Shown here in pieces: positions 16,386-54,386 of a stretch of 54,386 nucleotides of DNA. Position 1 is the first letter of the stretch. The number at the start of each line of letters is the position of its first letter. Source of the DNA: Acidimicrobiia bacterium (lineage in GTDB: Bacteria; Actinomycetota; Acidimicrobiia; Acidimicrobiales; Aldehydirespiratoraceae); contig JAHQYM010000006.1 of assembly GCA_024421095.1 (NCBI GenBank), positions 1-54,386 of the forward strand. The letters are read 5' to 3'. The notes below the pieces were generated by a model that saw nothing but the letters and a program-made list of their open reading frames with translations, was not told where the DNA came from and did not search any database. A program made the translations under genes and the position numbers.

Positions 16386-18446
16386 GTGGGTGCGGTGCAG
16401 CTAACTTTGCGTAAAGTCGTCGGTGCTGGTGGCAAAACAACCTTAGTACTGCTTTGCTTTTTGAACTTCATTGATGACTTGCCTCGTGCGGTGCGGGTGC
16501 TGGCCCCAGATATTGGCAACTCGCTCAACGTGTCGGATGCAGTGTTGGCTGGCGTGCTCGGTGTTGGCGGGGTTGCGCTGGCGGTTGGAGCGCTGCCGCT
16601 AGCGGCGCTCGCGGATCGCTATTCACGGCGCAAGATTATCGCGTTGGCATCTTCGTTTTGGGCGGCGGCCATGGTCGTAGCGGCATTCGTTGTGAACATT
16701 TTCCAGCTTTTCTGGACAAGCACGGTGATTGGTTTTGGGCAGGCGTACCGAATTCCGCTGGCTGGTTCGCTGATTAGCGATACCTATCCCGTTGAAGGTC
16801 GAGCCAGAGTGTTTGCGGTTGAGGCGCTGGGGAGACCTCTGGGTCTGCTTTGCGGGCCGGTGATTGTTGGTTTGATTGCGGCTATTGCTGGGGGTGATGA
16901 AGGTTGGCGTTGGGCAATCTTGTTTCTGGCCTGCCCACCGTTGCTGGCGGCGGTAGTTGCGTTTTCCTCTACGCATGTCGAAGAACCTGCGAGGGGTCAG
17001 TTTGAACAAGCGGCTGGCGTGGAAGTAACGGAACTTGAGGTCTCAATGAGAATAGCTTTCGCGCGCTTGCGACAAATCCCAACGTTTCGTTTTCTCGCCG
17101 CAGGCCTTAGCGTGCTTGGCTTCGCGCTGCTTAGCGTGCCCTTGCAGTTCAACCTTTTGTTGGAAGACAAATACGCTCTTGGTGCGTTAGCTCGTGGTGT
17201 TGTCGAGTCGCTAATTTGGCTGCCGTCTTTACTGGCTATTCCTATAGCTGGGCGCAAGATTGAGAAAGCTGTTGAAGCTAGCCCGCATTTGCTTGGCAGG
17301 TTTATGGGTGTGTTGCTAGCTGCAGCGGGCTGCTTGTATTTGTTGGCTTTTCCGATTAAAACGATTGGGCTGTTGGTGTTGTTGACCGGGTTTGCCCAAG
17401 CATTGATTTCGGCTGCGTTTGTGGCTGCCCCAGTGATCATTGCGTTGGTGGCGCCTTATCGCATACGTGCTCAAGCGTTCGCGGTGATACCAGTGTCTGT
17501 GTTTCTATTTGGTGGTTTTGCTGGCGGGGTCATTGCTGGTCAGCTTTCTGAGGTTTACAACAATCGTACGGCATTGATTTTGTTGGCACCGGGTTTGGCG
17601 CTCTTGGGTGGTTGGTTGCTATGGCGTGGCGCGTCACATATCGGCGATGATGCCTCTGCGGCAATTGCTGAGTTGCGTGAGGAGCAAACTGAGGTCCACA
17701 AGGCGCTCTCGGGCGAAGATGTGCCGCTACTGCAGTTACGCAACCTTGACGTTTGCTACGGGTCGGTGCAGGTTTTATTTGACGTTGAACTTGAGTTAGC
17801 GAAGGGTGAAGTTGTTGCTCTGTTGGGTGCTAACGGAGCTGGCAAAACAACCCTATTGCGCACCATTTCGGGTTTGGGTGTGCCACACGGGGGTTCGATA
17901 AAGCTCAACGGACGCACCATCACCTACACCGAAGCTGAGACACGATTTCGACTCGGCATCGTTCAAGTACGGGGCGGTGAAGGGATCTTTCCAGGGTTGA
18001 GTGTCAAAGATAACCTTCGCGCGGCGGTGCTCAAGAGCAATATGGAAACAGAGGAATATGAGCTAAAGACAGCCGAGTTAATTGAAACATTTCCAGTTCT
18101 AGGCAAACGCTTCAATGATCTAGCAGATGATTTGTCTGGGGGTCAGCAACAAATGTTGGCGCTGGCGATGGCGCTCATTCACGATCCAGAGATCTTGCTG
18201 ATAGATGAATTGAGTTTGGGTTTAGCTCCGGCGGTAGTGGCAGAACTGTTGGCAGTTATTGCCGAATTGAAAGCCGGGGGACAGACTATGTTGATTGTGG
18301 AACAGTCGCTCAATGTGGCTTTAGAATTTGCCGACCGTGCCGTGTTTTTAGAAAAGGGACTCATTCGTTACAGTGGCTCAGCAAAAAATCTTGCTGAACA
18401 TACTGATCTGGCACGGACGGTCTTTTTCGGAGGAAGCAACTCGTGA
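16386..18446 (+). CDS. MFS transporter fused to a LivF-type ABC ATPase
   Basis: A 686-residue fusion. Residues about 18-420 form a 12-segment major facilitator carrier, with the loop 2-3 signature ALADRYSRRK at about 74-83. Residues about 450-686 form a complete LivF-type ATPase: Walker A GANGAGKTT at 481-489, the QVRGGEGIFPGLSVKDNLR block typical of LivF (usually VPEGRxxFPxLTVxENL), signature LSGGQQQ at about 582, Walker B ILLIDEL at about 603, and the His-loop region ending IVEQSLN, where LivF normally has VEQN. Both halves look intact. GTG 16386 or GTG 16395 could be the start. Its stop overlaps the GTG of the next gene (GTGA), so the two giant proteins are co-translated. A carrier joined to an ABC ATPase is a very unusual design; the carrier may move the same ligand or work as a separate exporter. 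Confidence 0.9.
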   Translation: MGAVQLTLRKVVGAGGKTTLVLLCFLNFIDDLPRAVRVLAPDIGNSLNVSDAVLAGVLGVGGVALAVGALPLAALADRYSRRKIIALASSFWAAAMVVAAFVVNIFQLFWTSTVIGFGQAYRIPLAGSLISDTYPVEGRARVFAVEALGRPLGLLCGPVIVGLIAAIAGGDEGWRWAILFLACPPLLAAVVAFSSTHVEEPARGQFEQAAGVEVTELEVSMRIAFARLRQIPTFRFLAAGLSVLGFALLSVPLQFNLLLEDKYALGALARGVVESLIWLPSLLAIPIAGRKIEKAVEASPHLLGRFMGVLLAAAGCLYLLAFPIKTIGLLVLLTGFAQALISAAFVAAPVIIALVAPYRIRAQAFAVIPVSVFLFGGFAGGVIAGQLSEVYNNRTALILLAPGLALLGGWLLWRGASHIGDDASAAIAELREEQTEVHKALSGEDVPLLQLRNLDVCYGSVQVLFDVELELAKGEVVALLGANGAGKTTLLRTISGLGVPHGGSIKLNGRTITYTEAETRFRLGIVQVRGGEGIFPGLSVKDNLRAAVLKSNMETEEYELKTAELIETFPVLGKRFNDLADDLSGGQQQMLALAMALIHDPEILLIDELSLGLAPAVVAELLAVIAELKAGGQTMLIVEQSLNVALEFADRAVFLEKGLIRYSGSAKNLAEHTDLARTVFFGGSNS

Positions 18447-21301
18447 TTGAACTTCTGGGTCTTGAGGTCGCGCAGCAAGCCATCATCATTGGGTTGGTTG
18501 TTGGTTTGACTTATGCGGCTTTGGCGGCGGGTTTTGTGCTGATTTATCGGGCTACCGGGGTGCTCAATTTTGCTCATGGCGAGATGGGGTTTTTTGGTTT
18601 GGCGCTGTTCGTCTTGATGGTGGTGAATTACGAAGTGAATTGGTGGTTGGCGTTCGTTTTGGCAATCGCCGCAACCGCTTTCGTGGGCATGTCTGTGGAA
18701 CTGATTGTGGTGAGACGCTTGTTCCAGTCGCCACGCCTGGTTTTGTTGATTGCCACGATTGGTGTTGGGCAGATACTTACTTTGGCGCGTGTTGGTTGGA
18801 TTCCAGATATCACCACGGGGGGGAACATTCCGACTGCGTTTGAGGTTACCTGGGAACCAACGACGCATATTCGAGTTTCTGCCCGCGAGGTCAGCGTTTT
18901 GGTGGTGGTGCCAGTACTGATTGGGCTACTTGGTTTGTTTCTGGCCAAAACGCGCTTTGGTCTGGCGGTGCGGGCATGTGCCGCGAACCCTGAAACAGCA
19001 AGGGTTTATGGCATCTCCCCTCGGCAAGTTTCTACCATTGTGTGGACCATAGCCGGGGGGTTTTCCGCAGCAACAGCCGTGCTTGTCGCTCCGCTGCAGG
19101 GCTTGCAGTCGGCTACTGTGGATGACACCGGCAATCTCTTGGTTGAGGAATTGTTGCTCAAAGTTCTGGTTGTGTCGTTGTTAGCAAAAATGTCTTCTTT
19201 GCCGGGGGTCGTTTGGGCTGGGGCGGCGGTCGGGGTGGTGGAATCCATCGCCCGCGACAACGTCCACTCAAGTAACTATTCGATTGTGAATGTTTGGTTC
19301 TTTATCACAGTGTTGTTGTTGGTGTTGTGGTTTGTGCGTGCAGGTAAAAAGGAATTGGGTTGGTCGCTTGCGCCAACATTGCGCCCGATCCCGCCGCGGC
19401 TCCGAAATATTTGGTGGGTGCGAAACCTCAACAAACTTGGCTTTGTTTTCTTGTTTGGACTTTTGGCTTTGGTTCCTTTAGCGGTTACTGATTCGGCACC
19501 GATACTGACTTGGACCAACATTTTGATATTTGCCATGGTGGCTTTGTCTTTGACTGTGTTGACCGGTTGGGCGGGGCAACTATCGCTTGGTCAATTCGCG
19601 CTTGTGGGGGTTGGAGGGTTGGCAACGCTGGCTTTTACCGAAGGCCACGATGTGCCTATTCCTTTAGATTTGTTTGATCTGCATATTGATGTGCCTTGGG
19701 GTGTGGCGGTGGTGATGGCTACTGCTTTGGGTGTGGTCGTTGCGGTTTTGGTGGGTTTGCCGGCTTTGCGGGTACAAGGATTGTTTTTGGCTGTCACTAC
19801 CTTGGCTTTCGCGGTGATGGCGGGCACGTGGGCTTTCCGTCAAGGTTTCTTTAGCGGTGGTACGAGCGCACCACGGCCGGTAGACCGGCCGGAGTTGTTT
19901 GGTGTGGACTTAGGCGAATCACGACGCACGATGTATTTGTTTTGTTTGGTTGTGTTGATGGTGTTGGTGTTGATGCTGGCGCGGCTGCGTGCTAGCGGTG
20001 TGGGTCGTTGCTTGATCGCGGTGCGTGACAACGAAAATGCTGCGGCATCTTGCGCTGTGCCCGGCGGTCAGATGAAGTTGACCGCGTTTGCGTTGGCTGG
20101 GGGGATGGCTGCTTTGGCGGGGGCGTTGTTTGTGATCGCTGCGCCGTCACTTAGCCCAACGACTCAGTTCGCTCCGGCCGCTTCGATCAGGGTTTTGGTG
20201 ATTGCTGTTGTGGGTGGGCTAGGGACGGTCGCTGGGCCGCTGCTTGGTTCGTTGTGGATTTTGGGTATTGAAAGGCTAATTCCCGACCAACTTCAAGGTT
20301 TGCAGCAACTGCTTACCTCGAATATTGGCTTGTTGGTGTTGCTGATGTATATCCCGGGCGGGCTCATTCAGATCGTTTACTCGCTGCGCGATGCGTTGTT
20401 GGGGTGGGTCGACCGCCGTCTCGCTAAGACACGCAGTCAACCCACTCCACCCGTGGCTAACGCAGCAGTGTTGTCTTCGTCTCGTGCTCGCCAACCGCGC
20501 ACTGCTGGCCCGGCACTCGTCGCTAAAGCAATCACCGTCCGCTTCGGCGGTAATGTGGCTTTAAACCAAGTGGACTTTGAGGTAGGCCAAACCGAACTAG
20601 TCGGGTTGATTGGCGCTAACGGTGCCGGTAAGTCCACCTTGTTGAACGCTATTGGGGGTTTTGTGCCGGCCCAGGGAACCGTCGAACTATTGGGGGTGAA
20701 TGTTTCTGCGTATCGCGCCGCGGCTCGTCACAGGGTCGGTTTGGGCAGAGGCTTTCAAGCCGCGCGACTTTATCCGGGTTTGACTGTTTGTGAAGCGATA
20801 ATGGTGGGGCTGGAAGCTCGTTCGCGTTCTCGTCTAGTGCCCTCGGTATTGGCGTTTGCAACAGCGGCCACCCAAGAAAGCGCCAAAAGAAAGTCCGCTG
20901 CTGATATTATCGATTTTCTGGGTTTGGGTGACTACGCCGAGCGTTTCATCGGAACTCTTTCAACGGGGACTCGGCGTGTTGTGGAACTCGGTTGCCTGCT
21001 CGCTGTTGATGCCCGTGTTTTGCTTTTGGACGAACCAACTGCGGGGTTGACGCAACAAGAAGCGGAGGCGTTCGGCTCGCTAATCAAAACGATCCAATCG
21101 GAACTGAACGCAGCAGCCGTTGTGATTGAGCATGACATGGCTTTGGTGATGAACATCAGCGATCGCGTGTATTGCCTCGAATCGGGCATCGTGATCGCGA
21201 ATGGTTCGCCCGAGGCGGTCCGCAACGACAGTTTGGTGATAGCTAGTTATCTTGGTACCAACAAGACCGTGCTGGGTGCCTCGGAGCGCACTCCCAGTTA
21301 G
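18443..21301 (+). CDS. LivH-LivM-LivG fusion: two permeases and an ATPase of a branched-chain-amino-acid-type ABC transporter
   Basis: A 952-residue three-domain fusion. Residues 1 to about 300 are a LivH permease (GLTYAALAAGFVLIYRATGVLNFAHGEMG, then LRACAANPETARVYGIS-like text as VRACAANPETARVYGIS). Residues about 335-660 are a LivM permease (LTGWAGQLSLGQFALVGVGG, VRDNENAAASCAVPGGQMKL, VGGLGTVAGPLLGS). Residues about 690-952 are a LivG ATPase with Walker A GANGAGKST near 724, signature LSTGTRR near 838, Walker B VLLLDEPTAGL and H-loop VIEHDM. With the MFS-LivF protein just upstream and the lipoprotein at 14537-16192 it gives every part of a Liv system in three polypeptides. Its stop overlaps the convergent kinase gene by TTAG. 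Confidence 0.93.
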   Translation: MIELLGLEVAQQAIIIGLVVGLTYAALAAGFVLIYRATGVLNFAHGEMGFFGLALFVLMVVNYEVNWWLAFVLAIAATAFVGMSVELIVVRRLFQSPRLVLLIATIGVGQILTLARVGWIPDITTGGNIPTAFEVTWEPTTHIRVSAREVSVLVVVPVLIGLLGLFLAKTRFGLAVRACAANPETARVYGISPRQVSTIVWTIAGGFSAATAVLVAPLQGLQSATVDDTGNLLVEELLLKVLVVSLLAKMSSLPGVVWAGAAVGVVESIARDNVHSSNYSIVNVWFFITVLLLVLWFVRAGKKELGWSLAPTLRPIPPRLRNIWWVRNLNKLGFVFLFGLLALVPLAVTDSAPILTWTNILIFAMVALSLTVLTGWAGQLSLGQFALVGVGGLATLAFTEGHDVPIPLDLFDLHIDVPWGVAVVMATALGVVVAVLVGLPALRVQGLFLAVTTLAFAVMAGTWAFRQGFFSGGTSAPRPVDRPELFGVDLGESRRTMYLFCLVVLMVLVLMLARLRASGVGRCLIAVRDNENAAASCAVPGGQMKLTAFALAGGMAALAGALFVIAAPSLSPTTQFAPAASIRVLVIAVVGGLGTVAGPLLGSLWILGIERLIPDQLQGLQQLLTSNIGLLVLLMYIPGGLIQIVYSLRDALLGWVDRRLAKTRSQPTPPVANAAVLSSSRARQPRTAGPALVAKAITVRFGGNVALNQVDFEVGQTELVGLIGANGAGKSTLLNAIGGFVPAQGTVELLGVNVSAYRAAARHRVGLGRGFQAARLYPGLTVCEAIMVGLEARSRSRLVPSVLAFATAATQESAKRKSAADIIDFLGLGDYAERFIGTLSTGTRRVVELGCLLAVDARVLLLDEPTAGLTQQEAEAFGSLIKTIQSELNAAAVVIEHDMALVMNISDRVYCLESGIVIANGSPEAVRNDSLVIASYLGTNKTVLGASERTPS

Positions 21302-46627: not shown

Positions 46628-47380
46628 TTAGCCGGCGAACGCGGCAAGCCATTGTTCGCGGGTCTTGGGCCGGTACACAGCGTTGTTTTGCCTCGTTGCC
46701 CCCATTGTCGCTGAAAAATCTTGCGAATAGCGGTGCCCTGGAAACAAGACCACATTATCGGGAACTTTTGCTAGCCGCTTCGTGAGGCTCTCATACATTT
46801 GGGTGGGATCAGAACCAGGCAAATCCATACGTCCGCAGCCATCAAGAAACAAAGTGTCACCAGCAACTAGACAGTTTTCTACCAGAAAACACTGACTACC
46901 TGGGGTATGGCCAGGCGTGCATATTAGTTCCACATCTATGGCACCAATCGTCACCACATCGCTGCTGCTGTGCTTAGTCAGGTACGCGTCACCCACCCCA
47001 GTAACCGCTCGCACATAATCGGCTTCGGGGGCTTGCACATGAATAGGTACATCCACCCGTTCAAGCAGTTCGGCAATTCCTTCTAGTTGCAAACCCAGCA
47101 TTGAACCGCCCACATGATCGGGATGGTAATGAGTCGCGAGCACACCTTTACAAGCCATGCTGTCGTCAGCAAGGATGGCTAACAAGGCGGCGATGTCATA
47201 GGCTGGATCAACAAGCAACGCTTCATTGGTTTGGCGGTCACCAATCGCATAAACACAGTTCACCATCTGGGTCGCAACTGGATCGGAAGTCGCAAAATCA
47301 CGCCCCGAGAGCAGTTGACGAAAATAAAACCGCTCGTTTGCTTGCTTAGTAAGAGTTTGAGTCACGATGAACACGACCAT
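46628..47380 (-). CDS. metallo-beta-lactamase-fold hydrolase (glyoxalase II/persulfide dioxygenase-like)
   Basis: A 250-residue cytosolic hydrolase. The metal motif HxHxDH is His84, His86, Asp88, His89 (ATHYHPDHVGG), with further ligands in CTPGHTPGSQCF (His), VAGDTLFLDGCGRMDLPG (Asp) and FPGHRYS (His). The phrase LFLDGCGRMDLPGSD is typical of the group that includes persulfide dioxygenases and hydroxyacylglutathione hydrolase relatives. The end GATRQNNAVYRPKTREQWLAAFAG fits the same group. The substrate is unproven; mycothiol- or bacillithiol-linked thioesters or persulfides are plausible in actinobacteria. It is divergent from the DUF354-like gene (42 bp). Confidence 0.88.
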   Translation of the reverse strand: MVVFIVTQTLTKQANERFYFRQLLSGRDFATSDPVATQMVNCVYAIGDRQTNEALLVDPAYDIAALLAILADDSMACKGVLATHYHPDHVGGSMLGLQLEGIAELLERVDVPIHVQAPEADYVRAVTGVGDAYLTKHSSSDVVTIGAIDVELICTPGHTPGSQCFLVENCLVAGDTLFLDGCGRMDLPGSDPTQMYESLTKRLAKVPDNVVLFPGHRYSQDFSATMGATRQNNAVYRPKTREQWLAAFAG

Positions 47381-48078: not shown

Positions 48079-49194
48079 TTAACGTGGCGTGTTTAGCAGA
48101 ACTTTTGCGATTCGAGCCGATGCCAGTCCGTCACCGAACGGGCTTGAAGTTGACGCCATCGCTTCGTGTGCATCCCTGTCATCAAGCAACATGTAACTTT
48201 GGCGCAAAATCTCCGCAGTGTCGGTGCCGACCAAACGAGCTGCACCAACCGCAACCGCTTCGGGACGTTCCGTTTTCTCGCGGGTGACGAGAACCGGCAC
48301 GCCGAGATACGGTGCCTCCTCTTGCACACCACCAGAATCCGTAACGATCAGATGCGCCTCGTTCATTGTTGCGACAAATTCAAAATAGTCAAGCGGCTCA
48401 ACAAGATGCACTCGCGGGGTTGAACCCAAAATCTCCTCTACCACAGGTTTGATGGCGGGATTCGGATGAACCGGCAACAGCACATTGATGTCTTCACGGC
48501 GGGCAAGTGTTCTTAGTGCGGCGCATACTCGTGCGGCGCCGCCACGCTGGTTCTCGCGACGGTGCACGGTAGCCAGGAGCAATTTCTTGTCGTCAGCCAA
48601 AAAAGGGAACCGATTACGAATATTTTCGCGGAGTTGATCACCCATAGATGACAGAATCCATTCGAGGGCATCGATCACGGTGTTGCCCGTTACGAAAATG
48701 CGGTTCGGTGCGATGGATTCGGCGAGGAGGTTGGATCGGGCAGTTTCGGTCGGGGCGAAATGCCAGTGTGCGACTTGAGCGGTGAGGCGTCTGTTCAGTT
48801 CTTCGGGCCAGGGCGCGAGGGGGTCACCGGTTCGTAATCCTGCTTCCACGTGACCGACTCGGACACCTGCGTAAAAGGCAGCTAACGAAGCCGCAAAGGT
48901 GGAACTCGTGTCACCTTGTACCAAAACGATGTCGGGCCTAATTTCATCTAAGATCCCTTGCAATCCGCGCAAGACAGCAGCAGTGAGGTCGGCTAGAGGT
49001 TGTGCTTCGCGCATCAAATCCAAGTTGAAATCAGTCTCAATTTCGAATGGTTCAAGGGCGGTTGCGAACATCTCTCTGTGTTGCCCGGTGGCACATAGAT
49101 TCACTCGTACCGAAGATTCGCCACGGAGACGGCGGATCAGCGGTGCCATTTTGATCGCTTCGGGCCGTGTACCGATTACGACCAGGATATCCAA
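48079..49194 (-). CDS. wecB: UDP-N-acetylglucosamine 2-epimerase (non-hydrolysing)
   Basis: A 371-residue enzyme that makes UDP-ManNAc for surface polysaccharide or teichoic-acid linkage units. It has the family opening LDILVVIGTRPEAIKMAPLI, VQGDTSSTFAASLAAFYAG, HVEAGLRTGDPLAPWPEELNRRL, VTGNTVIDAL, TVHRRENQ, and VTDSGGVQEEAPYLGVPVLVTREKTERPEA. TTG 49194 is preferred as the start because GGAG lies eight bases upstream and the length then matches; the open frame continues to 49299 without family similarity. It is convergent with the DUF354-like gene. Confidence 0.95.
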   Translation of the reverse strand: MDILVVIGTRPEAIKMAPLIRRLRGESSVRVNLCATGQHREMFATALEPFEIETDFNLDLMREAQPLADLTAAVLRGLQGILDEIRPDIVLVQGDTSSTFAASLAAFYAGVRVGHVEAGLRTGDPLAPWPEELNRRLTAQVAHWHFAPTETARSNLLAESIAPNRIFVTGNTVIDALEWILSSMGDQLRENIRNRFPFLADDKKLLLATVHRRENQRGGAARVCAALRTLARREDINVLLPVHPNPAIKPVVEEILGSTPRVHLVEPLDYFEFVATMNEAHLIVTDSGGVQEEAPYLGVPVLVTREKTERPEAVAVGAARLVGTDTAEILRQSYMLLDDRDAHEAMASTSSPFGDGLASARIAKVLLNTPR

Positions 49195-49606
49195 TTGCGT
49201 TGCTCCGATTTCTGCGTCTCTAGTTCGCGGTGCTGCGTTGAACAGTGACGAGTTGCTACCAATGCCAAAGGTTACCCATCCGCCACCGAAACAAGACAAC
49301 TAGGTGCTACCGCAAGCTCGATGTTTGTTGTGAGCTCCTGAGTTTGGCGTGTTGAGATAGTGTTTTGTAGGGGTCTTGATGCGTCCGAGCTATGCACACG
49401 GCTCGGATCTCTTGCCCGAGGTTTCGTAAGGGTGCGGAACCGCAATAGATTCGGCTACGGACTAGGCCGAGGATCATAGACATTTGGGTTTTGCTCGGTA
49501 GATTCGCTTGTTGGTGTACTATGAGTTGGTGTGTCAAAGCGGATGCAACTGATTCGGTGGGCAAGCAAGATATTGTCGGCGGAACCTAGACCTTAGGAGG
49601 TAGAAG
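49195..49606. other. 412-bp gap before the nuclease cassette
   Basis: No supportable gene. A minus-strand open frame (49307-49564) has no ribosome site or recognisable family. The right end holds the leader of the next gene, with a strong ribosome site AGGAGG at 49595-49600. The gap marks the left border of an accessory segment. Confidence 0.45.
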
Positions 49607-50944
49607 ATGAGTCACGGTGAGACTGCCAGGCTGATCCCAGTCTCAGGGATTAAAGGCAGGAAGGAGGCGGAGGATCGAGCCACTTCTGCGCTGCTCGCAG
49701 TGATGACTGTTGTGAGACCGTTCGCGTCTGTGATTTTGGGTATGTTTGGCGTGAGAATCGGTAAGCGAGCACAAATTGAGGCATTCGTTCAACCGGAATG
49801 CGAAACCTCCGATGGAACTTCTTTGCGTCCCGATGGATTGATACGCGTGTCGCAAGGCAAAAAAGTTGCTTTCGAAGCGTACGTCGAAGTGAAGACTGGC
49901 GCGGCACCTCTCCGTCTTGATCAATTGACCGCTTACATTGAGGCCGCGAAAGCCAACTATGTGCCTGCTGTGATTTCTATTTCTAACGAAATAGCACCGT
50001 CACCAGGAGTTCATCCGACTGAAGGCATTCGAGTGCGGGGTCGAACTGGCCCAGACCTGCATCATGTTTCTTGGGCGAAAATTGTTTCCAAAGCAATCAA
50101 GGAGCACCATCATCGAGGTATTGAAGATCCAGAACAGGCGTGGATTCTCGGAGAGTTGATCCGTTATTTGACCCACCCGAACTCCGGCGTGGTGGATTTT
50201 TCCGACATGGGAACAGGTTGGGTTTCGGTCCGGGATGGGGCTTTTGAAGACCGGCTATCGAAGCGTGATCCCGCCGTTGCTGATGTGTGTCAACGTTGGG
50301 ATCAACTACTAAGCGTAACTGCGATGCGTTTGAGTGTCGACACTGGATCGGACACTATCGAAGTCATCCCCAAGACGCATCAGCAAGACTCACGGCTGCG
50401 CAGCAAAGGTTTTATTGATTCGCTTTGCGAAACGGGCATTTTGAGCGGTGAGTTACGTGTCCCGGACACTGTGGGCGATATCGAACTTGAGGTCAACTTG
50501 CGAGCCCGAAGAATTACGTTGAGTACCCGACTGAGAGCTCCCGACGACCGCACTGCGCGTGCTCGCGTGGTCTGGCTTGTCAGACAACTAAGAAACGCGC
50601 CGGAGAGTTTGTTGGTTGATGCGTTTCCGAAAGCAACCAAGAGTCCTGTGACCGCTTCTCTGGCCGAACTTCGAGAAGACCCACTGGCCTGCTTAAGCCT
50701 AGACAAGAAACCTCCAGCGCGTTTTATTTTGCGACTCCATTCGCAGATGGGCACAAGTCGAGCAACCAAACGTACGCCCGGGTTCATCGATTCGGTGATT
50801 GACGCTACGGTTACCTATTACGCCGAGGTGCTGCAGGGCCTCCAAACATTCGTGCCCAAAGCACCACCGATCTCCCCTCCCGCATCATCAAAATCAGATG
50901 ACGAATCAACCGATGCAATAGACGGCGACGAATCCTGCAACTAA
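49607..50944 (+). CDS. PD-(D/E)XK nuclease-like protein, first gene of a two-gene cassette
   Basis: A 445-residue protein with a strong ribosome site (AGGAGG, six bases before ATG 49607). Residues about 20-130 carry a complete-looking PD-(D/E)XK core: an early Glu in AEDRATSALL (Glu22), Asp76 in LRPDGLI, Glu94-x-Lys96 in AYVEVKTG, and the QxxxY motif Gln106/Tyr110 in LRLDQLTAYIEAAKANY, as in RecB-like nucleases. The remaining 300 residues form an unknown region ending in a Pro/Ser/Asp-rich tail, with a beta-rich stretch (IELEVNLRARRITLSTRLRA). There is no signal peptide. It is followed after 48 bp by an exonuclease/BRCT gene. The pair looks like a DNA repair or anti-phage module, but the specific system is not one I can name. 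Confidence 0.7.
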   Translation: MSHGETARLIPVSGIKGRKEAEDRATSALLAVMTVVRPFASVILGMFGVRIGKRAQIEAFVQPECETSDGTSLRPDGLIRVSQGKKVAFEAYVEVKTGAAPLRLDQLTAYIEAAKANYVPAVISISNEIAPSPGVHPTEGIRVRGRTGPDLHHVSWAKIVSKAIKEHHHRGIEDPEQAWILGELIRYLTHPNSGVVDFSDMGTGWVSVRDGAFEDRLSKRDPAVADVCQRWDQLLSVTAMRLSVDTGSDTIEVIPKTHQQDSRLRSKGFIDSLCETGILSGELRVPDTVGDIELEVNLRARRITLSTRLRAPDDRTARARVVWLVRQLRNAPESLLVDAFPKATKSPVTASLAELREDPLACLSLDKKPPARFILRLHSQMGTSRATKRTPGFIDSVIDATVTYYAEVLQGLQTFVPKAPPISPPASSKSDDESTDAIDGDESCN

Positions 50945-50992
50945 TGTTTGCTTAGTCGACAGGCTCACCGACATTCAAAAGACAAGGAAATT

Positions 50993-52186
50993 ATGAACAC
51001 TAATCGAGACGCAGCACCCAGATACGCGGTGATCGATGTTGAGACGACTGGTTTTTCGCGCAATGACCGCATCGTCGAGGTCGCATGCGTCACCGTGACT
51101 GGCGGCGAGATCGTTGATGAGTACGACACGCTGGTCCAGCCAGAACGAGACCCCGGTCCGGTAAGGATCCACGGCATAACGCCGACGATGTTGCAATCCG
51201 CCCCTCCATTCGCAGCGGTTGCCGCTGACATTGCGATGCGACTTGATGGTGCAATTCTGGTCGCGCATAACATCAGCTTCGATGTCAGATTCCTCTCGCA
51301 GGAAATCGAGAGGTTGGACCAAGCGGCGTTCGACCCGGGTGTTGGCGTGTGTACCTACAGACTCACCGGTTTGAAATTGGCAATCGCGGCCGAGCGCTTC
51401 GGAACGCACCGCCCTTCGCACGGCGCGCTCGACGATGCCCGTGCAGCTCTGGGCGTGTTTAGCCATCAGAGTCCTTATCAGGTCCTCAACAGCGTGCGAA
51501 ACGCGTCGTTCAGTTGCTCGGACGCACCCTCGGGTCTCACCATCCGCCGCCCAGAAGCTTCGGCGCGCCGGGGGTCACTTGGACAAGTTGTCAGTCGAAC
51601 TGACTGGCCTCAGACCTCGGTAGCTAACGAGTCGGTTTATCTCGATGTTTTGGACCGGTGCCTAGACGACGGGATACTCGAACCCGCTGAACAGAAGTGG
51701 CTCGATGACACGGCATTCCACCTTGGTCTCAGTGACCAACGAAGACTGATCTTGCATACTCGGTATTATGACCTTCTAACGCAACGAATCGTTGCTGACG
51801 GAATCGTGACCGAGAGTGAGCAGGCGCTCTCCGAGAATATTGCTCGGATACTTCGACTCGATCCCAAGAGTTTCTCAGGCACCTACGTCCAGGGCGTTAA
51901 CTACGACTCCGCTGCTGGAACGGTCACTATGAGGGTCGGAGATGTTGTCTGCTTCACAGGCGCGTCTTCGCAACTCGGAATCGACCGCGAACAACTAGTT
52001 CAGGCCGCTCAAGATGTCGGACTCACCGTTGCGTCCAACCTGACAAAGAAATGCTCGCTGCTCGTCGCTGCTGATCCGTTGTCGCAGTCAGGCAAGGCAA
52101 AAACCGCGCGGAAGAGAGGAATACCGATGATCGACATCGCGCATTTCCTCAACGCTGTCGATCAGCTGTCTAACACCGACCAATAG
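50993..52186 (+). CDS. DEDDh 3'-5' exonuclease with TerB-like and BRCT domains
   Basis: A 397-residue protein. Residues 10-155 are a DnaQ-type exonuclease with Asp15, Glu17 (DVETTG), Asp97 (NISFDVRF), His143 and Asp148 (HGALDDAR). Residues about 218-298 are a helical domain resembling TerB (YLDVLDRCLDDGILEPAEQKWLDDTA, VADGIVTESEQALSENIARIL). Residues about 317-388 are a BRCT domain (GDVVCFTGASSQLGIDREQL, KKCSLLVAADPLSQSGKAKTARKRGIPMI), which recognises DNA ends or phosphoproteins. ATG 50993 has AAGGA close upstream; the open frame from 50948 is not needed. Similar exonuclease-BRCT proteins occur in actinobacteria; the pairing with a PD-(D/E)XK protein is notable. Confidence 0.85.
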   Translation: MNTNRDAAPRYAVIDVETTGFSRNDRIVEVACVTVTGGEIVDEYDTLVQPERDPGPVRIHGITPTMLQSAPPFAAVAADIAMRLDGAILVAHNISFDVRFLSQEIERLDQAAFDPGVGVCTYRLTGLKLAIAAERFGTHRPSHGALDDARAALGVFSHQSPYQVLNSVRNASFSCSDAPSGLTIRRPEASARRGSLGQVVSRTDWPQTSVANESVYLDVLDRCLDDGILEPAEQKWLDDTAFHLGLSDQRRLILHTRYYDLLTQRIVADGIVTESEQALSENIARILRLDPKSFSGTYVQGVNYDSAAGTVTMRVGDVVCFTGASSQLGIDREQLVQAAQDVGLTVASNLTKKCSLLVAADPLSQSGKAKTARKRGIPMIDIAHFLNAVDQLSNTDQ

Positions 52187-52677: not shown

Positions 52678-54386
52678 CTAGGATTGTGTGGGTGTTGACA
52701 GTTTGAGGGCTCTGGTTAGGAATGTGGCCATTTGGGCTCGGGTTACTGGTTGGTTGGGGCAGTAGCTCAGCGGGTTTTGGCTGCAGCCGGTGGTGATACC
52801 GGCAGCGAACACGGCGTTGATGCTGGCTGTGTGATTGTTGCTGGGGTCAACGTCGGTGAACCCTGCTTCTGTGGTGTCGTCGAGTTTGAGGGCTCTGGTT
52901 AGGAATGTGGCCATTTGGGCTCGGGTTACTGGTTGGTTGGGGCAGTAACTCAGCGGGTTTTGGCTGCAGCCGGTGGTGATACCGGCAGCGAACACGGCGT
53001 TGATGCTGGCTCCGTGACTGTTGCTTGGGTCAACGTCGGTGAACCCTGCTTCTGTAGTGTCGTCGAGTTTGAGGGCTCTGGTTAGGAATGTGGCCATTTG
53101 GGCTCGGGTTACTGGTTGGTTGGGGCAGTAACTCAACGGGTTTTGGCTGCAGCCGGTGGTGATACCGGCACCGAACACGGCGTTGATGCTGGCTGCGTGA
53201 CTGTTGCTTGGGTCAACGTCAACGAACCCTGCTTCTTCAACGTCGGTGCCGGTGATCGTGGCGGTGACTGTGCCGACCGTGGGGAGGGTGTAGTTTGTGT
53301 CGTTGCTGGTTGCGGTGTGGGTGATCTCTGAGGTGCCTGTGTTGGTGCCGGTCACGGTGAACGTTTGGGCGGTGCCCCAGTTGTCGGTGGTGAACGTGAC
53401 CGCCTCAGACACTGTCGCTGCGTCTGGTGTGCCGCTGGTGGCGGTGACTGTGACACTCGCAGACGGTTGCGTGTCCAACACCGCCGTGTAAACCGCGGTC
53501 GTGCCTTCTTGCAGCGACACGGCGCTGGTCGACAACGACACACCGGGCGCGTCGGTGATCGTCAAGGTCACTGGCGTGACTGTCAGGCCGGTGTCGGTGG
53601 CGGTGAGGATGACCGTTTCTGGGTCTTCGGCGGTTTCGTCGTCGGTGATTTGAATTGTGCCCGCCGCGGTGGTTTGGCCGGCGGCGATCGTGAACGCTGG
53701 CGGCAGCGTGTAGTCTTCGTCGGCTGTGGCAGTGCCCGTGGCGGTCAACGTCACCGACACCGCCGACGTGGCCGCCTCATCAAGCGTTGCGGTGACAGCC
53801 ACCGACCCGCCCTCGATGACGGTGTCGTCGTCTGCGTCGGTGGTCAACACCAGCATCGACGGCTCCGGTGCCGGCGGCGGACCCGGGTTGAACACCGGCG
53901 GGACAAAAACGGACACGCGTGCCTCCACTGAGTTGACAGCCATGGTGGTCGGGTATTTCGGGTCTGTACCTGAGACTGCGTGGGTGACTGTGGAGGTGCC
54001 GGTTTCTACCCCGGTCAACGTGAACGTCTGCCGCGTGTCCCAATCAGCGGTGGTGAACGTCAGCGCTGTAGGCGCGACGGTCGCGTACTCGGGGTTGCCG
54101 CTAGAGGCGGTGACCGTCACGTCAGCCGACGGTCTGGTGTTCAACTCGACCGAATACGTCGCCTTTTGGCCAACAAACACGCCCCTGACCGTGGGCCCGC
54201 TGACGAACACCCCGTGATCGTCGTTGGCGGTGATCGTAAAGGTCGCACCTGTCACGGTCAGACTGGCAGCCGAAGCGGACAACACAACAGTCTCGTCGTT
54301 TTCGGTGTCGCGATCGTCGGTGATCTGTATTGTGGCGGTCGCTGAAAACTGACCTGTCGGGATCGTGAACGCCGACGGCAGCGTGT
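52678..54386 (-). CDS. large exported Calx-beta/SLH surface protein, C-terminal part
   Basis: The frame is open from 52678 to the right edge and continues beyond (TLPSAFTIPTGQFSATATIQ at the edge), so this is the C-terminal 568 codons of a bigger protein. It consists of alternating Calx-beta-like repeats (VILTATDTGLTVTPVTLTITD, ATADEDYTLPPAFTIAAGQ) and Ig-like repeats (VTFTTDNWGTAQTFTVTG), a Pro-rich linker, then three SLH repeats of 61 residues. Each SLH repeat has two Cys (TTGCSQNPLSYCPNQPVTRAQ) and ends in the TRAQMATFLTRALKL block. SLH domains hold proteins to the cell wall. It is likely a surface adhesin or S-layer-associated protein. Confidence 0.88.
   Translation of the reverse strand, partial: TLPSAFTIPTGQFSATATIQITDDRDTENDETVVLSASAASLTVTGATFTITANDDHGVFVSGPTVRGVFVGQKATYSVELNTRPSADVTVTASSGNPEYATVAPTALTFTTADWDTRQTFTLTGVETGTSTVTHAVSGTDPKYPTTMAVNSVEARVSVFVPPVFNPGPPPAPEPSMLVLTTDADDDTVIEGGSVAVTATLDEAATSAVSVTLTATGTATADEDYTLPPAFTIAAGQTTAAGTIQITDDETAEDPETVILTATDTGLTVTPVTLTITDAPGVSLSTSAVSLQEGTTAVYTAVLDTQPSASVTVTATSGTPDAATVSEAVTFTTDNWGTAQTFTVTGTNTGTSEITHTATSNDTNYTLPTVGTVTATITGTDVEEAGFVDVDPSNSHAASINAVFGAGITTGCSQNPLSYCPNQPVTRAQMATFLTRALKLDDTTEAGFTDVDPSNSHGASINAVFAAGITTGCSQNPLSYCPNQPVTRAQMATFLTRALKLDDTTEAGFTDVDPSNNHTASINAVFAAGITTGCSQNPLSYCPNQPVTRAQMATFLTRALKLSTPTQS
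52701..53240 (-). repeat. three near-identical 183-bp repeats encoding SLH domains
   Basis: The block starting GTTTGAGGGCTCTGG occurs at 52701, 52884 and 53067, exactly 183 bp apart, with only a few substitutions between copies. The repeats encode the three SLH domains. Their similarity at synonymous sites points to recent duplication or gene conversion. Confidence 0.92.

What the first reader, a model, noticed from the sequence alone, without database searches (positions are those of the whole stretch)
49607..52186. Two-gene nuclease cassette: PD-(D/E)XK protein plus DEDDh exonuclease with TerB-like and BRCT domains
Both catalytic cores look intact (Asp76, Glu94, Lys96, Gln106 and Tyr110 in the first; Asp15, Glu17, Asp97, His143 and Asp148 in the second). 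The genes are adjacent, on the same strand, in a segment bordered by non-coding debris and a pseudogene. Known defence and repair modules often pair an endonuclease with an exonuclease or a DNA-end sensor. The large unassigned C-terminal region of the first protein has no obvious family. I cannot match the pair to a named system, so it is a candidate undescribed defence or repair module.
Basis: partly seen in the sequence, partly recalled or inferred. Interest (0 to 1): 0.75.

Follow-up and report, generated by a model that had tools for sequence, protein, structure and literature searches.

The report
Nuclease pair from a channel-linked defence module
Two adjacent bacterial genes encode DNA-cutting enzymes, and in related bacteria one of them is normally joined to a gene for an unusual ion channel, which suggests a membrane-linked guard against viruses or foreign DNA whose parts are swapped in and out; nobody has tested it.

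Summary
Window 49607-50944 encodes a PD-(D/E)XK protein (P1) and 50993-52186 a DEDDh exonuclease with TerB-like and BRCT regions (P2). All named catalytic residues are invariant in relatives. P2 is already catalogued as candidate anti-phage gene PDC-S48 (PADLOC, E 1e-92). P1 matches no Pfam, PADLOC, NCBIfam or PHROG family, but belongs to a large, sporadic, mainly actinobacterial family, fused to TerD in Rhodococcus and Streptomyces. The P1-P2 pair is not generally conserved: most relatives of each stand alone. It overlaps or abuts P2 in a two-gene operon across four genera, joined by P1 (order P2-channel-P1) in one genus. All six family genomes with this P2 clade also have the channel, including the window's own genome, where it lies intact on another contig beside a type ISP restriction enzyme. 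Best reading: a modular, membrane-linked nuclease module against phage or foreign DNA; function is inferred, not shown. The P2-channel operon is, as far as I could search, undescribed.

The parts
49607..50944 (+). P1, 445 aa: PD-(D/E)XK nuclease protein
   Evidence: no Pfam/PADLOC/NCBIfam/PHROG family
49607..50176 (+). P1 N-terminal PD-(D/E)XK domain, residues 1-190 (E20/E22, D76, E94-x-K96, Q106, Y110)
   Evidence: AlphaFold2 model, mean pLDDT 89.9; AF1548 Z 9.5, Can2 7.4, FokI 7.0
50198..50866 (+). P1 C-terminal domain, residues 198-420, fold resembling YbjN / type III secretion chaperones
   Evidence: Domain model pLDDT 92.2; YbjN Z 7.1, Spa15 6.8-6.9, AmyR 6.8; tentative at this Z
50984..50988 (+). 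Shine-Dalgarno-like AAGGA before P2's ATG
50993..52186 (+). P2, 397 aa from ATG 50993 (ORF open from TTG 50948): DEDDh exonuclease - TerB-like - BRCT; PADLOC PDC-S48
51029..51460 (+). P2 DEDDh (RNase_T, PF00929) domain
   Evidence: E 1.6e-25, residues 13-156
51638..51874 (+). P2 TerB-like helical region (approximate limits)
   Evidence: PF05099 residues 267-294, E 0.017, below cut-off; seen in 10 of 11 relatives, best 0.0014; limits from alignment A3
51944..52138 (+). P2 BRCT domain
   Evidence: PF12738 E 2.6e-6, residues 318-381; PF00533 above cut-off

Best explanation
P1 and P2 are two parts of a modular, membrane-linked nuclease module aimed at phage or other foreign DNA. SHOWN by sequence: P2 is a DEDDh exonuclease with TerB-like and BRCT regions. 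In its close relatives it is translationally coupled to a six-TM voltage-gated-type channel with a non-potassium filter (T[MA]GAEG). P1 is a PD-(D/E)XK protein that can sit third in that operon or beside P2. The window's genome keeps all three, with the channel on another contig. INFERRED: the channel tetramer senses or answers membrane perturbation during DNA entry. The TerB-like region (and TerD, where it is fused to P1 homologues) couples that signal to the enzymes. P1 cuts DNA, P2 resects the ends with BRCT helping to hold them, and P1's YbjN/chaperone-like domain binds a partner that keeps the nuclease off. This logic resembles Zorya, Kiwa and SNIPE, built from different parts.
For: P2 to PDC-S48, E 1.4e-92. 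P2-channel operon in G075, G198, G129, G404, G406, G400 and G407, overlapping by 4-11 nt or abutting where both gene ends could be read, and in G369 with the channel upstream. Channels match Ion_trans above cut-off and all carry GAEG where other channels have GYGD/GFGD. Channel present in 6 of 6 family genomes with this P2 clade and in 1 of 45 others, Fisher p 4e-7; P2 and channel distances correlate, r 0.94, Mantel p 6e-4. Own-genome channel is intact, 72% identical to G075's, beside a type ISP R-M gene. Window P2 is sister to G075's channel-linked P2, support 99/95. P1 joins the operon in G400/G406/G407. P1 fused to TerD in Rhodococcus and Streptomyces. At one chromosomal site the flanks are 84-94% identical but P2 only 73-77%. 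P1's 82% relative sits beside ABC-3C genes. Ion channels and NERD nucleases are P1's commonest neighbour families. PADLOC hits: 9 family rows among 130 neighbours, 0 among 88 distal genes.
Against: No activity has been measured. Most P1 relatives stand alone with no shared neighbour, and P1 is not required for the P2-channel operon (G075, G404). Defence-gene enrichment around P1 is weak (about p 0.03, taking 9 family rows as about 7 proteins). Three of the four P1-P2 adjacencies are in one genus, hence possibly one event. The own-genome channel rests on a metagenome bin. The sensing role and all coupling steps are inference.
Confidence: 0.45

Rival explanations
1. Two or three independent accessory genes: P1 and P2 are separate solitary defence-type genes that drift together in variable regions; only P2 and the channel interact.
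For: P1 and P2 rarely co-occur in the class; P1 neighbourhoods are not conserved; G404 has P2-channel at the same site without P1.
Against: Within the family all four co-occurrences are adjacent, in two gene orders; other ion channels also recur next to P1; TerB/TerD link on both sides.
Confidence: 0.3
2. Stress-response or DNA-repair module of the Ter kind: the nucleases process chemically or oxidatively damaged DNA and the channel restores ion balance; phage is not the target.
For: TerB-like region in P2 and TerD fused to P1 homologues; BRCT and DnaQ-type exonucleases are common repair parts; Ter pathways are tied to xenobiotic stress and DNA processing (review text in PMC7824862).
Against: Patchy presence (P1 in 20 of 268 good class genomes), fast divergence of the cassette against its flanks, neighbours of R-M, ABC-3C and Ymh type. 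No TerD in 19 genomes with P1. TerB itself occurs in the tested anti-phage system Shango (PMC10250203).
Confidence: 0.2
3. Housekeeping function: P2 is a DnaQ-like proofreading exonuclease and P1 a repair endonuclease.
For: P2 passes the broad dnaq domain model TIGR00573.
Against: All full-length equivalog cut-offs are missed by wide margins; P1 and P2 are absent from most relatives.
Confidence: 0.04

Closest known systems
PADLOC PDC-S48 (candidate single-gene phage defence)
   Same: P2 matches both PDC-S48 models over most of their length (E 1.4e-92 and 4.4e-56).
   Different: Catalogued as a single gene (my reading of the 'S' label); here its close relatives come with a channel, and in some genomes with P1. 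No paper naming PDC-S48 was found in the library.
Zorya
   Same: Membrane ion-conducting part plus nuclease effectors acting near the membrane (PMC11890865, PMC12904381).
   Different: [quoted passage not shown] here a six-TM voltage-gated-type channel and a DEDDh exonuclease, with no sequence match to Zorya models.
Kiwa
   Same: Tetrameric membrane sensor plus DNA-acting partner (PMC12904381).
   Different: KwaB binds but does not cut DNA; neither protein here matches Kiwa models.
Shango and Ter-dependent stress systems
   Same: TerB-type domains; Shango is a tested anti-phage system (PMC10250203).
   Different: Shango has TerB, helicase and ATPase genes; classic Ter loci have TerC/TerD/TelA. 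No TerD in this genome.
PD-(D/E)XK effector nucleases such as Can2/Card1
   Same: Fold of P1's N-domain (Z 7.4).
   Different: P1 has a YbjN/chaperone-like C-domain and no CARF domain was found by profile search.

Membership tests
PD-(D/E)XK nuclease superfamily (P1) | Catalytic D...E-x-K, with helix Glu | tested here: met
   E22, D76, E94, K96, Q106, Y110 invariant in 66 sequences
PD-(D/E)XK nuclease superfamily (P1) | Core fold | tested here: met
   Model pLDDT 89.9; structural matches to residues 1-190 are dominated by nucleases of this fold, top Z 9.5
YbjN / type III chaperone-like fold (P1 C-domain) | Fold match covering most of the domain | tested here: inconclusive
   Z about 7 to YbjN, AmyR, Spa15 and other chaperones, under the Z 8 caution line
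DEDDh exonucleases (P2) | D-E-D-H-D residues and RNase_T profile | tested here: met
   Invariant in 11 relatives; PF00929 E 1.6e-25
DNA polymerase III epsilon (housekeeping) | Equivalog model cut-off | tested here: not met
   dnaQ_proteo 74.9 bits against 222.7; PRK06063 166 against 389
PADLOC PDC-S48 | Full-length match to its model | tested here: met
   E 1.4e-92, profile 4-408 of 411
PADLOC PDC-S48 | Anti-phage activity | not testable with these tools
   Candidate by computation only
TerB family (P2 middle region) | Pfam gathering score | tested here: not met
   15.8 bits against 24.4, though the match recurs in 10 of 11 relatives; called TerB-like only
Ter stress-response locus | TerD present in the genome | tested here: not met
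   No PF02342 match in G000 or 18 other P1 genomes; the control genomes ring
Voltage-gated cation channel superfamily (partner gene) | Ion_trans profile | tested here: met
   PF00520 E 1e-22 to 2e-25; profile matches Kv channels of the PDB
Potassium channels (partner gene) | T-x-G-Y/F-G-D filter | tested here: not met
   T[MA]GAEG in all 9 sequences
Zorya / Kiwa | Sequence match of components to PADLOC models | tested here: not met
   P1 and the channel match no PADLOC family; P2 matches PDC-S48, generic DEDDh and a marginal Specificity_I only

The most novel reading that the evidence does not exclude
A membrane-linked anti-phage system in which a voltage-gated-type channel with a glutamate-bearing, non-potassium filter controls a DEDDh-TerB-BRCT exonuclease and, in some genomes, a PD-(D/E)XK endonuclease: ion flux or depolarisation at the site of DNA injection would license cutting.
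Probability: 0.25. Interest if true: 0.85.

Novelty: new variant of a known kind. Interest (0 to 1): 0.58.

Why it matters
It gives PDC-S48, a catalogued but unexplained candidate, a conserved partner: a channel with an altered pore. That turns it into a testable two- or three-gene system. A classical voltage-gated-type channel tied to DNA nucleases would be a new way of linking membrane events to DNA destruction. It also points out an unannotated nuclease family (P1) spread over hundreds of mainly actinobacterial genomes.

Tried and rejected
(1) Conserved P1-P2 pair: rejected as a general rule. (2) Channel remnant in the 490-base gap after P2: none by tblastn. (3) TerD near P1 in this class: none; only the plasmid-borne actinomycete homologues were seen to carry it. 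(4) Insertion-site mapping: the 2-epimerase next to P1 was not found in 7 relatives, and that search had no positive control. The metallo-hydrolase at 46628 is conserved, but its surroundings are not syntenic with the window. (5) Phage carriage: no P1 or channel relative in viral contigs, no P1 or P2 match in phage records; only DEDDh-domain relatives of P2 in viral contigs. (6) PDB sequence search for P1 gave nothing credible. (7) Papers joining DEDDh, TerB, BRCT and defence or channels: none found describing this. The primary Ter paper (PMC4104200) is not held. (8) Other Ion_trans channels of the phylum lack the GAEG filter and have no P2 beside them.

Full report
WHAT IS THERE. The window is a contig (G000:C216) of a 2.7 Mb draft genome; its nearest named relatives are Acidimicrobiia MAGs. 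P1 (49607-50944, 445 aa) and P2 (ATG 50993-52186, 397 aa) lie on one strand, 48 bases apart, with AAGGA before P2's ATG. P1 matches nothing credible in Pfam, PADLOC, NCBIfam or PHROGs. Sixty-six aligned relatives keep E22, D76, E94, K96, Q106 and Y110 without exception. AlphaFold2 (pLDDT 89.9) gives a PD-(D/E)XK domain over residues 1-190 (AF1548 Z 9.5, Can2 7.4, FokI 7.0) and a separate C-domain. Folded alone (pLDDT 92), the C-domain's best matches are mostly YbjN-type and type III secretion-chaperone folds at Z 5-7. That is suggestive, not proof. P2 has RNase_T (E 1.6e-25) and BRCT (above cut-off), and a sub-threshold TerB match that recurs in 10 of 11 relatives. P2 matches PADLOC candidate PDC-S48 end to end.

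IS THE PAIR CONSERVED? Not in general. In 395 genomes of the class P1 occurs in 25 and long P2 relatives in about 20. Only the window's genome has them together at one place; G258 has both on different contigs. In 20 P1 loci with wide flanks no P2 lies nearby. In the family (51 genomes) P1 is in 10 and this P2 clade in 6. All four with both (G000, G400, G406, G407) carry them side by side. The order is P1-P2 in the window and P2-channel-P1 in the other three, which share a genus. Co-occurrence p is 0.010 without correction for kinship.

THE HIDDEN PARTNER. In P2's close relatives the next gene is an Ion_trans channel of 220-260 aa. It overlaps P2 by 4 nt (G075, G198, G129) or 11 nt (G400), or abuts it (G404, G406); G407 has it too; in G369 it lies upstream; in G253 it is truncated. 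Pfam gives PF00520 and PF07885 above cut-off. In all nine sequences the potassium signature TxGYGD is replaced by T[MA]GAEG, while nearly all more distant channels of the phylum keep GYGD or GFGD, and none has P2 beside it. All six family genomes with this P2 clade have the channel, and one of 45 others does (Fisher p 4e-7). P2 and channel distances agree (r 0.94, Mantel p 6e-4). The window's genome has an intact channel on another contig (C15:3955-4626), 72% identical to G075's, next to a type ISP restriction-modification enzyme. Window P2 and G075 P2 are sisters (99/95). A split of an ancestral operon, with both halves kept, is the simplest reading. Misbinning of C15 cannot be excluded.

MODULARITY. 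At one chromosomal site of genus g3, beside the gene at L190:8469-10796 (aconitase-like by its sequence start, not profiled), G404 has P2-channel followed by other genes, while G400, G406 and G407 have P1 after the channel. Flanking proteins are mostly 83-94% identical between these genomes but P2 only 73-77% between G404 and G406/G400: the cassette changes faster than its surroundings. P1's 82% relative (G434) sits beside ABC-three-component genes. Across 80 P1 loci no neighbour is fixed, but Ion_trans and NERD are the commonest neighbour families (4 each of 130) and are not among the 25 families shown for the distal set. PADLOC gives nine family rows in 130 neighbours and none in 88 distal genes; taken as about seven proteins, p is about 0.03. 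In Rhodococcus and Streptomyces plasmids P1 is fused to an N-terminal TerD. So P1 touches TerD and P2 carries a TerB-like region; a review describes TerB and TerD as ligand-binding components that might sense the signal in a phage and xenobiotic response (PMC7824862), and TerB is part of the tested anti-phage system Shango (PMC10250203).

MECHANISM. Shown: domain make-up, intact active sites, operon coupling of P2 to the channel, altered filter. Inferred: the channel forms a tetramer that senses or alters ion flow when DNA enters; P2's TerB-like region relays this; P1 cuts and P2 resects; P1's C-domain restrains or targets it. Zorya, Kiwa and SNIPE show that membrane sensors tied to DNA-acting proteins are a working principle (PMC12904381). 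Rivals are a Ter-type stress or repair role and mere co-drift of accessory genes; I give them real weight.

VERDICT. The defence reading is plausible but the unit is different: the conserved core is P2 plus an unusual channel, with P1 as an optional third part. P2 is a new member of a catalogued candidate family; the channel link and the P1 family appear undescribed within what could be searched.

Noticed in passing
G000:C15:3955-7914 (L203): Intact GAEG-filter channel directly upstream of a 1073-aa type ISP restriction-modification enzyme in the window's own genome.
   Followed up: partly
L206 (G322): The same channel type without P2, beside a Hypoth_Ymh (PF09509) gene.
   Followed up: no
L186:6997-10782 (G258): A P2 relative fused behind a DEAD/Helicase_C helicase in one 1262-aa protein.
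   Followed up: no
G248, G223, G146, G022: P1 homologues broken into two frames or with an inner stop, so P1 seems to be lost repeatedly.
   Followed up: no
window 16386-21301: Two overlapping large ORFs (686 and 952 aa) with partial PADLOC matches (mad3, AriA), possibly a paired ATPase system.
   Followed up: no
window 48079-49299: UDP-GlcNAc 2-epimerase next to P1, not found in 7 relatives (no positive control); may be part of an accessory stretch.
   Followed up: partly
window 52678-54285: Surface-type protein with three SLH repeats immediately downstream on the other strand.
   Followed up: no
L031:6644-8979: Two hypothetical genes directly upstream of the TerD-P1 fusion on Rhodococcus plasmid pR8L1, possibly its partners.
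   Followed up: partly
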